Under the pieces are notes generated by a model that saw only the letters and a list, made by a program, of their open reading frames with translations, was not told where the DNA came from and made no database searches. Below, one piece after another: positions 40,384-44,542 of a stretch of 64,000 bases of DNA (within the stretch, counting starts at the first letter, position 1; every line of letters begins with the position of its first letter). The translations under genes were made by a program, and so were the position numbers. Source of the stretch: Actinomycetes bacterium (GTDB taxonomy: Bacteria; Actinomycetota; Acidimicrobiia; IMCC26256; JANYLB01); contig JANYLB010000022.1 of NCBI GenBank assembly GCA_025363815.1, forward strand, positions 19,155 to 83,154, given 5' to 3'.

Positions 40384-40407
40384 CAGCCGGGGCCTAAACC
40401 CCGGCTG
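40384..40407. terminator. Perfect 9-bp-stem hairpin downstream of the RNA methyltransferase gene
   Basis: cagccgggg cctaaa ccccggctg. Confidence 0.65.
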
Positions 40408-40458
40408 ACCTGCGCATTCTTGGAGCGGACGACCGGGCTCGAACCGGCGACATCAACC
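40404..40458. repeat. att-like direct repeat, copy 1: 55 bp = 3' half of tRNA-Gly plus flank
   Basis: gctgacctgcgcattcttggagcggacgaccgggctcgaaccggcgacatcaacc, identical to 44450-44504; not a full tRNA here. Confidence 0.95.
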
Positions 40459-40691
40459 GCACATCGGCGGACCATAAGAGCAGGTCAGAAGCTTTTCCGG
40501 ACGGCGCCGAACACCCCCGAACGCGAGCAGCCGCGGGATAGACGCGGGATGGAGCAGCAAGATGCGAGCCACTTCCCGTTCGTGGATTCCGCAGCGGCAA
40601 CGCACGAGGCCGTTGGTGCGGCCTGTTGCGCACCGCATCAGCAACTCATAAGAACGTGCTAGTAGTCATTACAGAGCTGTTCTATAGTGCA

Positions 40692-41333
40692 GTGGTGCCC
40701 GGGAATGCGACCACAGCCAAGAAGCCTCGCCGCTACGCCTCGCCGATCCGGGCCCAGCGCGCCCAGGAGACGCGAGCCGCGCTGATGACCGCCGCCGCCG
40801 AGCTGTTCAGCACGAAGGGGTGGGCCGCGACGGGCATGCGCGACGTAGCCGGCGCCGCCGGAGTCGCGATCGAGACGGTGTACTCGCACTTCGCCTCGAA
40901 GCGGGCCCTGCTCCAAGCGGTGATCGATGTCGCGGTCGTCGGCGACGAGCGATCGTTGGCGGTCGCCGAGCGGGACGAGTTCGCCGCACTCGGCCGTGGT
41001 CGACGCAGTGCGCGGGTGACGGCCGCCGCCGCTTTGGTGCGTGCGGTCCATGAGCGCACCGCCTCGTACGCCATGGTTCTTCGCGAGGCGGCACCGGGCG
41101 ACGAGCAGATCGCCGAGCTCCTCCAAGCGACGCGCTCGCGCCAACGCGAGGACATTGAGGCCGGTGCCGCGCTCATCGTTGGTCGCCCGCCGACAGCGGT
41201 AGAGACCGACGAGCTGTGGGCGCTGCTCAGCCCCGAGCTCTACCTCCTGCTCGTAAATGAGGCGGGTTGGACTCCAGCCGCCTATGAGGACTGGGTGGCG
41301 ACAACGTTGTCTCGCGTCATCCCCCGCGCATGA
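40692..41333 (+). CDS. TetR-family regulator
   Basis: TRAALMTAAAELFSTKGWAATGMRDVAGAAGVAIETVYSHFASKRALLQAVID. Confidence 0.9.
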   Translation: MVPGNATTAKKPRRYASPIRAQRAQETRAALMTAAAELFSTKGWAATGMRDVAGAAGVAIETVYSHFASKRALLQAVIDVAVVGDERSLAVAERDEFAALGRGRRSARVTAAAALVRAVHERTASYAMVLREAAPGDEQIAELLQATRSRQREDIEAGAALIVGRPPTAVETDELWALLSPELYLLLVNEAGWTPAAYEDWVATTLSRVIPRA

Positions 41334-41351
41334 CACTGAGGAGGATCAGCG

Positions 41352-42515
41352 ATGAGGAACGATCAAGGTAGACCCGCCGACACGCGAACGATGAACATCG
41401 TCCACCAGGCACTGCGACGCGACCTAGAACGCGCGACGACCGCGCTCGAGGCGAGCCCTTCGCCGGCTGTCCGGCAGCGCGTCGCCATTGCCAGCCACCT
41501 CTGCTGGATGATGGACTTCCTTCGAGCTCACCACGACTCGGAGGACGAAGGGCTCTACCCCGTCGTGCGAACGCGATGCCCTGACGCCGTCGACCTCCTC
41601 GAGCAGATGGATGTCGACCACCAGAGGATCGCCCGATCGATCGACACGGTCGACGCCGCGGCGACGTCCTACGGGAAGGCTGACGGATCGTCGGCTCGGG
41701 CGCGATTGGTCGCGGCCATCGGCGCGCTCAACGAGGTTCTCCTCCCGCACCTTCAGCGCGAGGAGGAGCACATGATGCCGATCGTGTCGGAGGTGCTGAG
41801 CGATGCGGAGTGGAAGGCGATCGAGCACGAGCACAACGTGAAGCCAAAGAGGATCGCCGAGCTCGGCAAGGAAGGTCACTGGCTGATCGACGACGCCAGC
41901 GCGGACGATCGGGCCAAGGTGCTCGGGCTCGTTCCTGCCGTGCCGCGCTTCGTGCTGCTCCACGGGTACGGACGGATCTACCGCCACCAACGCGACGCAT
42001 GCTGGCGACCGTCGGCCGCTGTCCATCGAGTGCAGAAACACGGCCACAACGAGATCGTCGTGCCCGCCGAGCCCGACGCCGTGTGGCACGTCGTCCGTGA
42101 TGTCACCCGCGTCGGCGAGTGGAGCCACGAGTGTCTCGAGTGCTCGTTCGTCGGCGGTGCCACTCTCGCTGAGCCCGGTGCGAGGTTCCGGGGCCGGAAC
42201 CGCCAGGGCATCATTCGCTGGGGTCGCGTGTGCGAGGTGCTGAGTACCGAGGGCCGGGAGCTGGTGTGGCGAACCGTGCCGACGATGCTCTTCCCCGATA
42301 GCACCGTGTGGCGCATTCGCGTGACTCCCGCCCACGGCGGCACGCGTCTCGAGCAGAGCTTCGACGTGATCCGCGCTCCGAAGGTGCTCGACATCATCTA
42401 CGCGGCGATCCTTCCTGCCCACCGCGACCGCGCCACTGCACTCACCGACGATCTACGTCGCCTCGGCGAACTCGCCAGTGAGACGTCGACCAACGGGCAA
42501 GTGACCGTCGCCTGA
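41352..42515 (+). CDS. Hemerythrin (HHE) domain fused to SRPBCC/polyketide-cyclase-like domain
   Basis: LRAHHDSEDEGLYPVV...DHQRIARS...LLPHLQREEEHMMPIV...EHEH (His/Glu ligand pattern); C-terminal VPAEPDAVWHVVRDVTRVGEWSHECLECSFVGG. Confidence 0.82.
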   Translation: MRNDQGRPADTRTMNIVHQALRRDLERATTALEASPSPAVRQRVAIASHLCWMMDFLRAHHDSEDEGLYPVVRTRCPDAVDLLEQMDVDHQRIARSIDTVDAAATSYGKADGSSARARLVAAIGALNEVLLPHLQREEEHMMPIVSEVLSDAEWKAIEHEHNVKPKRIAELGKEGHWLIDDASADDRAKVLGLVPAVPRFVLLHGYGRIYRHQRDACWRPSAAVHRVQKHGHNEIVVPAEPDAVWHVVRDVTRVGEWSHECLECSFVGGATLAEPGARFRGRNRQGIIRWGRVCEVLSTEGRELVWRTVPTMLFPDSTVWRIRVTPAHGGTRLEQSFDVIRAPKVLDIIYAAILPAHRDRATALTDDLRRLGELASETSTNGQVTVA

Positions 42516-42572
42516 GGACCACGACACGCCAACCGGCGGCGTGATCTGCAGTGGCTGGGGAACGTTCGCATG

Positions 42573-43308
42573 GGCGCTGTTGTGTTGGTTCGGGTAAGGT
42601 CACGGTGAACCGATTTCTATCTCGTTGCGGGTCAGATCGTGCGGGCGAGTTCGGTGAACGCAGCGTCGATGCGCCGGTGGGTGCGCGCGTCGACGCCGAG
42701 TTCGTAGTGACCGCGACGGATGTTCTGCATGAGCGCGTGGCCGCGGATGATCACGCGCGCCGAATGGTCGCATTCGAGTCCGCGCACCGGGCGGAGTCTG
42801 GTGTTGAGTCGTCCGTGGTCGCATTCGACTCGGTTGTTCGCGTACTGCTCCGTGTTGTGAAACGCAGCCGGGATGAGTGCTTTGATCGCAGCCCGCAATG
42901 CGGGCGCCCGGTCGGTGACCACTTCGATTGGCTCACCGTGGGCGCGCAGTGCCGTGATAAAGAACCGGCGTGCTGCCCAGAGATCGCGCCGGGCCGAGAC
43001 GAGCACGTCGATGATCTGACCGTGATGATCAACGGCGCGATACCCATAGCGCCATCGTCCAGCGACCTTCACGTAGGTCTCGTCGACATGCCAGCGGTCA
43101 CCGACCGCATTTCGGCACGGCCGCGCCGCGTTAGCGAGTAGTGGTGTGAAGCGTTGCACCCACCGGTAGATGGTGACGTGGTCAACCTCGATCCCACGCT
43201 CACCGAGCAGCTCTTCGACGTCGCGGTGCGGGCACCGGACGGGAACGGCTGAAGATCATCCCGTCACACTCACCGGCCGGCGCGACCTTGCGCCAACGCA
43301 ACAGAGCC
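42573..43308 (-). mobile_element. IS6-family insertion sequence (736 bp) with terminal inverted repeats
   Basis: TIRs GGCGCTGTTGTGTTGG (42573-42588, + strand) and GGCTCTGTTGCGTTGG (43308-43293, - strand), 14/16 identical; encloses an IS6-type transposase. Confidence 0.8.
42632..43255 (-). pseudogene. IS6-family transposase, N-terminally truncated, no clear start
   Basis: PHRDVEELLGERGIEVDHVTIYRWVQRFTPLL...WHVDETYVKVAGRWRYGYRAVDHHGQIIDVLVSARRD...EVVTDRAP...ANNRVECDHGRL; frame open to stop at 43256-43258; DDE residues retained. Confidence 0.75.
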
Positions 43309-43371
43309 GTCGGACTCACTCACGGAACGATGCGTCTCTGGGGTGACATCGGCGGTCGGACGAAGCCCTTT

Positions 43372-43387
43372 GTCAACATATGTTGAC
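43372..43387. promoter_or_regulatory. Perfect 16-bp palindrome, candidate operator
   Basis: GTCAACATATGTTGAC is identical to its reverse complement. Confidence 0.8.
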
Positions 43388-43411
43388 GAAGGGGCCAGCT
43401 CGCAGTAAAAT
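43383..43411 (+). promoter_or_regulatory. Sigma70-type promoter TTGACG-N17-TAAAAT, ATG 8 nt after the -10 (leaderless)
   Basis: TTGACG 43383-43388, TAAAAT 43406-43411, ATG at 43420. Confidence 0.7.
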
Positions 43412-43419
43412 TACCGCAA

Positions 43420-43626
43420 ATGGATATCGAGCTGAGTGCACGGAAGCACGGAATCGACGACCCCGACATGATGCATGCGTATCGGAATCATCGGAAGGCG
43501 TTCGCCACCGACGATGACGCCGTCACGATGTACGTCGGCCCCTCGCGCACAGGTGCTCCGCTCGAGATTGGCGTGCATGCGATGGCGGCCCGATCGAAGT
43601 TCTTGAAGGGATGGTGGACACCATGA
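43420..43626 (+). CDS. Small protein, toxin-like first gene of a putative TA pair
   Basis: MDIELSARKHGIDDPDMMHAYRNHRKAFATDDDAVTMYVGPSRTGAPLEIGVHAMAARSKFLKGWWTP; followed by ATGA-overlapping gene. Confidence 0.6.
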   Translation: MDIELSARKHGIDDPDMMHAYRNHRKAFATDDDAVTMYVGPSRTGAPLEIGVHAMAARSKFLKGWWTP

Positions 43627-43892
43627 CGAAACCGACACGCGCTGCGCGAGCCGCGGCGCTCGAAGATTGGGCCGATGAAGTCGACGAGGCTGATCTGGTC
43701 GAGGTCGACAGTGCAGTGCTACAGCACCTCGGACAGTTGGCGGCGAAGCGTGACACGCTGGAGCGTGACGTTCGGGCAGCCGTCGAAGAAGCTCGTCGTT
43801 CCAAGAAGTCGTGGAGCGCAATCGGCGCGATGCTCGGCGTATCGAAGCAGGCCGCTCAGCGCAAGTACTCAACACGTACGAACGCAGCTTGA
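43623..43892 (+). CDS. Small HTH protein, antitoxin-like second gene of a putative TA pair
   Basis: ERDVRAAVEEARRSKKSWSAIGAMLGVSKQAAQRKYS: C-terminal HTH; 4-bp overlap with upstream gene. Confidence 0.62.
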   Translation: MTKPTRAARAAALEDWADEVDEADLVEVDSAVLQHLGQLAAKRDTLERDVRAAVEEARRSKKSWSAIGAMLGVSKQAAQRKYSTRTNAA

Positions 43893-43910
43893 GTTCGCGA
43901 AGACTGATGG

Positions 43911-44112
43911 CGCGTCTGTGACCAAATCCGCGATGCTCGTGAAGCGGCCGGTCTCAGTCAACGCGATCTCGCGCAACGGATGGCGACGAGCCAAGCCGCG
44001 ATAGCGCGTCTCGAATCTGGCAGTGTCGGGGCAACGCTCACGGCCGACGCTGCAGAGCGCCGCCGCGGCGTTGCACTTGAGCATCACGCTCGAGTTGCGC
44101 CCGGCAGGCTGA
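43911..44112 (+). pseudogene. XRE-type HTH remnant with a +1 frameshift
   Basis: IRDAREAAGLSQRDLAQRMATSQAAIARLESGSVGATLTA in one frame, then TLQSAAAALHLSITLELRPAG* from 44047 in another. Confidence 0.6.
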
Positions 44113-44139
44113 GGGCAATGCGGCGAGATCGCGCGGATC

Positions 44140-44422
44140 GCGGTCCGCTTAGCGAGCGCGCGTCGGATTCGTGCCACAGGCGTGCCACTTTGCACGGACT
44201 CCACCTGCACGACTACGCCACTACGGCGTCGCCGTCGCCGCGCAGTCCGGAGCCACGACGAAGGAGCTCGTGGCGCGTATCGGACACTCGACACCGCGCG
44301 CTGCGCTCATCTACCAGCACGCGGCGGTCGAGCGCGACCGCGAGATCGCCGAGCAGGTTGGTGCGGTGTTCGAGGCGTCGGCCGGGCGTGCGCGCGATAT
44401 ACGCGCGATAGACGGGGCCTGA
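44140..44422 (+). pseudogene. Tyrosine recombinase (phage-type integrase) C-terminal remnant, frameshifted
   Basis: RATLHGLHLHD in frame up to 44213, then LRHYGVAVAAQSGATTKELVARIGHSTPRAALIYQHAAVERDREIAEQVG one nucleotide out of frame. Confidence 0.78.
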
Positions 44423-44449
44423 CGCGAGGCAGCGACCCGGTTGTGGGCC

Positions 44450-44542
<93 letters not shown>

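What the first reader, a model, noticed from the sequence alone, without database searches (positions are those of the whole stretch)
43372..43892. Compact TA-like module: perfect 16-bp palindrome over the -35, leaderless promoter, two overlapping small genes
Seen: GTCAACATATGTTGAC (43372-43387) is a perfect palindrome containing the first five bases of -35 TTGACG. A 17-bp spacer leads to -10 TAAAAT, and the ATG lies 8 nt downstream, so the mRNA would be leaderless. Gene 1 (68 aa) and gene 2 (89 aa, C-terminal HTH SWSAIGAMLGVSKQAAQRKYS) overlap by ATGA. Inference: gene 2 binds the palindrome and autoregulates, as in type II TA systems. From memory, gene 1 resembles unnamed small actinobacterial ORFs with a conserved HAM.xR.K motif. 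This is my best candidate for an uncharacterised small system here.
Basis: partly seen in the sequence, partly recalled or inferred. Interest (0 to 1): 0.76.

Follow-up and report, generated by a model that had tools for sequence, protein, structure and literature searches.

The report
Decaying RelS-RelI toxin-antitoxin with conserved operator
The two small genes are a partly broken copy of a recently described actinobacterial toxin-antitoxin pair (RelS-RelI), and the palindrome in front of them is one of a family-wide set of DNA sites whose letters change with the antitoxin's DNA-reading helix, which suggests these pairs regulate themselves although the founding paper saw no sign of it.

Summary
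The sequence features are as described. Both genes match the two chains of PDB 9SDC, the M. tuberculosis RelS-RelI toxin-antitoxin complex published in June 2026: gene 1 is RelS (E=1.6e-7), gene 2 is RelI (E=9e-8). The pair recurs across Acidimicrobiia, mycobacteria, Rhodococcus plasmids and phages, so the toxin-antitoxin reading holds, but the family is no longer uncharacterised. New here is the operator. The RelS-RelI paper found no inverted repeats in M. tuberculosis and no evidence of DNA binding. I find a matching dyad before 86 of 95 non-redundant RelI-type loci, against 3.8% of control windows. Orthologs 91-92% identical to M. tuberculosis RelS carry two dyads 28 bp apart. The half-site follows the antitoxin's recognition helix (residue 79: Arg with purine, others mostly T, at -7) and equals the EMSA-proven half-site of ClpC2 (GTCAAC), whose HTH RelI resembles. 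The window's RelS lacks 10 residues before its catalytic His and is probably inactive; RelI, promoter and operator look intact. The pair sits in a 4-kb degraded element at tRNA-Gly. Binding by RelI remains inferred; M. tuberculosis itself could not be checked.

The parts
43372..43387 (.). Perfect 16-bp palindrome GTCAAC-ATAT-GTTGAC, the proposed RelI operator; imperfect extension 43366-43393
   Evidence: clade A homologs have the same dyad at the same place; single site in host assembly
43383..43411 (+). Promoter: -35 TTGACG 43383-43388, 17-bp spacer, -10 TAAAAT 43406-43411; transcript probably leaderless
   Evidence: start site inferred from spacing
43420..43626 (+). relS-like toxin gene, 68 aa, with a 10-residue in-frame deletion relative to intact homologs; K9, H10, H53, R58 and K60 kept
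   Evidence: (PDB 9sdc_C, E=1.6e-7)
43623..43892 (+). relI-like antitoxin gene, 89 aa, C-terminal HTH with recognition helix about residues 75-88
   Evidence: (PDB 9sdc_A, E=9.3e-8)
43914..44112 (+). XRE-type HTH gene remnant, broken by a frameshift (context, probably not part of the pair)
   Evidence: HTH_31 E=6.9e-9
44171..44422 (+). Probable 3' fragment of a tyrosine integrase (context)
   Evidence: By eye only; no Pfam match; its place next to the tRNA fits
42573..43308 (-). IS6-family insertion sequence remnant, terminal repeats GGCGCTGTTGTGTTGG / GGCTCTGTTGCGTTGG, transposase frameshifted (context)
40404..40458 (.). Distal copy of the 55-bp att-like repeat of the tRNA-Gly 3' end
44450..44504 (.). 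Proximal copy of the 55-bp att-like repeat, overlapping tRNA-Gly(GCC) 44467-44542 (-)

Best explanation
The locus is a RelS-RelI type II toxin-antitoxin operon, toxin first, in a small degraded integrated element. Shown by sequence: gene 1 is a RelS homolog, gene 2 a RelI homolog, and the palindrome belongs to a conserved operator family. Inferred: RelI dimers, alone or with RelS, bind the palindrome through the C-terminal HTH, cover the -35 and repress the leaderless operon, so that loss of RelI raises transcription. In intact relatives RelS would be the RNase that M. tuberculosis RelS is, cutting 16S rRNA in the anti-Shine-Dalgarno region, and RelI would block its active site. In this copy RelS has lost 10 residues of the strand pair leading to the catalytic His, so the toxin is probably dead while the RelI repressor and its operator remain.
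For: Both genes match the two partner chains of PDB 9SDC; mechanism from PMC13284704. Pair recurrent in order and spacing. Operator dyad in 86/95 non-redundant HTH loci vs 3.8% of control windows, strict form 65/95 vs 0.6%; shuffles give 1.3/80. Half-site follows the recognition helix. Two dyads in orthologs whose RelS is 91-92% identical to the M. tuberculosis toxin. ClpC2, HTH relative of RelI, binds CGTCAAC-n5-GTTGACG by EMSA at a leaderless promoter. 10-residue deletion in window RelS; toxins of this subclade broken in 6/10 vs about 10-17% in others.
Against: No binding or toxicity data for this locus. The RelS-RelI paper reports no inverted repeats in M. tuberculosis and an HTH engaged with RelS in the crystal. 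ClpC2's authors place the DNA contact in another domain. Some acIV loci keep a dyad although their antitoxin lacks an HTH. The catalytic residues of window RelS are all kept, so inactivity is not certain. Structure search could not confirm the RelI fold.
Confidence: 0.82

Rival explanations
1. The dyads are bound by another regulator, for example a ClpC2-type protein acting in trans; RelI only neutralises RelS.
For: The ClpC2 operator has the same half-site. acIV loci keep a dyad with an HTH-less antitoxin. The crystal shows the RelI HTH in contact with RelS.
Against: The host assembly has only this one GTCAACN{4,5}GTTGAC, so no separate ClpC2 operator of that form, and no second strong gene 2 relative (assembly 89% complete). 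Operator letters change with the linked antitoxin's helix. Loci with other antitoxins mostly lack the dyad: 11/46 vs 86/95.
Confidence: 0.1
2. The window copy is a fully working toxin-antitoxin module with a compact RelS.
For: All residues matching RelS K9, H10, H64, R69 and K71 are present and the frame is open; a model with four strands is predicted at pLDDT 77.5.
Against: The missing 10 residues are most of the strand that presents the catalytic His; no other intact homolog lacks them; sister loci are often broken; neighbours are pseudogenes.
Confidence: 0.15
3. The palindrome is a chance feature or an end of the neighbouring insertion sequence.
For: An IS6 remnant lies just upstream and perfect 16-bp palindromes are expected about twice per window.
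Against: The IS terminal repeat ends at 43308, 63 bp away; the same dyad precedes relS in relatives.
Confidence: 0.02

Closest known systems
RelS-RelI (Rv2663-Rv2664) of M. tuberculosis, PDB 9SDC, Nucleic Acids Res. 2026 gkag571
   Same: Both proteins homologous, toxin first, small HTH antitoxin, catalytic residues kept
   Different: Window toxin has a 10-residue deletion; operator GTCAAC-n4-GTTGAC over the -35, whereas the paper reports no operator; mycobacterial orthologs have GTAAAG-n5-CTTTAC pairs
ClpC2 (Rv2667) autorepressor, Commun Biol 2023 6:301
   Same: Operator half-site GTCAAC, place at a leaderless promoter, partial HTH similarity
   Different: ClpC2 carries a ClpC1-like C-terminal domain and binds cyclomarin; spacer n5 instead of n4; not a toxin-antitoxin
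BrnT-BrnA
   Same: RelE-like toxin encoded first, small antitoxin second; phage relatives of gene 1 are annotated BrnT-like
   Different: BrnA is a ribbon-helix-helix antitoxin; gene 1 does not match the Pfam BrnT model

Membership tests
RelS-RelI | Toxin homologous to RelS | tested here: met
   phmmer to 9sdc_C, E=1.6e-7, residues 1-54
RelS-RelI | Antitoxin homologous to RelI (short, ClpC2-like HTH) | tested here: met
   phmmer to 9sdc_A, E=9.3e-8, residues 13-87
RelS-RelI | Adjacent genes, toxin first | tested here: met
   ATGA overlap in the window; same order in relatives
RelS-RelI | Residues needed for toxicity (K9, H10, H64) | tested here: met
   K9, H10, H53 in the alignment
RelS-RelI | Complete RelE-like toxin fold | tested here: inconclusive
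   10 residues missing before the catalytic His; model pLDDT 77.5
RelS-RelI | Toxicity, neutralisation and 16S rRNA cleavage | not testable with these tools
   Needs experiments
Autoregulated type II toxin-antitoxin | Operator dyad in the promoter, conserved with the antitoxin | tested here: met
Autoregulated type II toxin-antitoxin | Antitoxin binds the operator and represses | not testable with these tools
   Inferred from helix-operator association and ClpC2
BrnT-BrnA | Ribbon-helix-helix antitoxin and Pfam BrnT toxin | tested here: not met
   Gene 2 is helical with a C-terminal HTH; no Pfam BrnT match for gene 1
ClpC2 | C-terminal ClpC1-like domain | tested here: not met
   Gene 2 is 89 aa and ends with the HTH

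The most novel reading that the evidence does not exclude
RelI antitoxins are ClpC2-type DNA-binding repressors with a readable specificity code: residue 79 of the recognition helix largely sets the base at operator position -7, and paired operators 27-28 bp apart are bound by the RelI dimers of RelS:RelI assemblies. Each subclade would thus have its own private operator, against the published view that RelI may not bind DNA; in the window's subclade the repressor outlives its toxin.
Probability: 0.5. Interest if true: 0.66.

Novelty: new member of a known kind. Interest (0 to 1): 0.56.

Why it matters
RelS-RelI was described only in June 2026, and its authors left open how it is regulated, saying there was no evidence of DNA binding and no inverted repeats. 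The comparative data give a specific operator for each subclade, including orthologs whose RelS is 91-92% identical to that of M. tuberculosis, so one gel-shift experiment can settle the question. They also tie RelI to ClpC2, a proven autorepressor with the same half-site, and offer natural helix/operator variants for studying specificity.

Tried and rejected
The first own-genome DNA search used a mistyped query and is void. PADLOC and NCBIfam gave nothing useful for the pair. The palindrome as part of the IS6 end: rejected, the IS terminal repeat ends 63 bp away. A two-residue code with residue 81 setting position -3: written down before looking and only partly right; L140 has R81 with C at -3, and R-Q-K-Y helices pair with G, so it is not claimed. 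The blind prediction for L065 (second pair), L086, L089, L090 and L092 could not be tested because those antitoxins lack an HTH or run off the contig. Fold search of the gene 2 model against PDB gave no match at E below 0.001; 9SDC was not listed and that library stops in April 2026. M. tuberculosis itself was not among the genomes reached, and two viral-collection pattern scans got no answer. A viral scan with M. tuberculosis RelS found nothing. On the toxin tree residue 79 needs six changes but supported branches force only one, so the association is strong by count, not proven as independent events.

Full report
What is there. A perfect 16-bp palindrome alone is not surprising in 64 kb: three in the window, 2.4 on average in shuffles. 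This one extends to 28 bp with a single mismatched pair, and its pattern GTCAACN{4,5}GTTGAC occurs once in the host assembly.

What the genes are. Gene 1 matches a single PDB sequence, 9sdc chain C 'Toxin' (E=1.6e-7). Gene 2 matches best the partner chain of the same entry, RelI (E=9.3e-8). PDB 9SDC is the RelS-RelI complex of M. tuberculosis (Rv2663-Rv2664), described in Nucleic Acids Res. 2026 gkag571 (PMC13284704). There RelS is an RNase of RelE-like fold that cuts 16S rRNA between C1520 and U1521, RelI blocks its active site, and K9, H10 and H64 are needed for toxicity. Phage relatives are annotated BrnT-like toxin, but the Pfam BrnT model does not match. The pair is recurrent: gene 1 relatives occur in 43 of 247 genomes of the class (related contigs carry Acidimicrobiia titles), in Rhodococcus and Actinomyces plasmids, Gordonia and Mycobacterium phages, and in 22 of 396 genomes of the genus sampled around a PPE-rich genome, by inference Mycobacterium.

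State of this copy. Aligned with the intact homolog L003, the window RelS lacks exactly 10 residues between GV and HAM: the end of one strand, the turn and most of the strand leading to the catalytic His. The positions equal to RelS K9, H10, H64, R69 and K71 (here K9, H10, H53, R58, K60) are kept, so loss of function is likely but not certain. AlphaFold2 models it at pLDDT 77.5, and RelI at 88 with helices 6-19, 30-59, 64-71 and 75-88. In the same subclade 6 of 10 non-redundant toxins are broken, against 2/24, 3/22 and 5/29 in three other clades by a crude open-frame test, while the antitoxin HTH stays readable. The antitoxin seems to outlive the toxin there.

The operator. Upstream of relS in relatives a dyad recurs at nearly fixed places. 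Clade A, which holds the window, has GTCAAC-n4-GTTGAC over the -35. Clade B has RTCAAG-nTAn-(G/C)TTGAY ending just before the start codon. Clade C has nRCAAG-nTAn-CTTGYn, often twice. Mycobacterial loci have GTAAA(G/C)-n5-(G/C)TTKAC, mostly twice. In the final set the strict pattern is in 65 of 95 non-redundant HTH loci and the relaxed pattern in 86 of 95, against 0.6% and 3.8% of random windows from the same loci. The motif was defined on part of these loci, but the enrichment is far beyond what that could give. In the earlier set of 80, dinucleotide shuffles gave 1.3 strict hits on average and at most 6 in 200 runs, against 55 observed. Where two strict sites exist they are 27-28 bp apart in 15 of 18. 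Loci of the same toxin family with ribbon-helix-helix-like antitoxins (called by eye) carry TTTCGTAnTACGA instead.

Who binds it. The half-site varies with the recognition helix of the linked antitoxin. In the first set all 64 clear cases agree: Arg at residue 79 (window numbering) goes with a purine at -7, any other residue with T; over distinct helices it is 6:0 against 0:16, Fisher p=1.3e-5. In the enlarged set 76 agree, 2 disagree and 8 are mixed. Tree support for independent changes is weak. ClpC2, to whose HTH the RelS-RelI paper found RelI similar, binds CGTCAAC-n5-GTTGACG by EMSA, one to two nt upstream of a leaderless gene and often repeated over the promoter: the window's half-site. 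ClpC2's authors assign the DNA contact to its C-terminal domain; their crystallised N-terminal fragment stops at residue 72, before the expected recognition helix, so that point is open. The RelS-RelI paper states that no inverted repeats were found within 1 kb upstream and that DNA binding lacks evidence. Orthologs with RelS 91-92% identical to that of M. tuberculosis and the same RelI helix (L209-L211) have two: GTAAAG-n5-CTTTAC at -47 and GTAAAGGTAAGGTTTAC at -19. M. tuberculosis itself could not be fetched.

Setting. A 55-bp exact repeat of the tRNA-Gly 3' end lies at 40404-40458 and 44450-44504, bounding about 4 kb with a TetR gene, a hemerythrin/SRPBCC gene, an IS6 remnant, the RelS-RelI pair, a frameshifted XRE gene and what looks like an integrase end (by eye). 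Similar tRNA-Gly segments, some with partial copies a few kb away, occur in relatives. The pair thus sits in a decayed integrated element, a usual home for such systems.

Verdict. As a system it is a new, probably half-dead member of a known family. The valuable part is the family-wide operator, which answers, pending a binding assay, the regulation question left open by the 2026 paper.

Noticed in passing
window 40404-44504: A 55-bp perfect direct repeat of the tRNA-Gly 3' end bounds a 4046-bp degraded integrated element; partial tRNA-Gly copies near the full gene in relatives suggest an integration hot spot.
   Followed up: partly
L065, L085, L086, L090, L092: RelS homologs, several of freshwater Actinobacteria origin, are paired with short acidic proteins that lack an HTH; all but L085 still have a dyad (AGCAAC-n4-GTTGCT) before the toxin. 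Who binds it is unexplained.
   Followed up: partly
L024, L030, L109, L111, L114-L116, L160, L162-L164: Relatives of the toxin without a RelI-type antitoxin carry a different conserved dyad, TTTCGTAnTACGA, just before the start; in L024 and L030 the next gene looks like a ribbon-helix-helix antitoxin.
   Followed up: no
L006:1501-1941: The 5' half of a RelS gene is fused in frame to a complete RelI, with the clade A operator still in front.
   Followed up: no
L132-L136, L169-L174: Window-type RelI genes in genomes where no RelS was found at the chosen cut-off: possible orphan antitoxins or repressors.
   Followed up: no
L073 and L065: Two different relS loci lie within a few kb on the same contig.
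   Followed up: no
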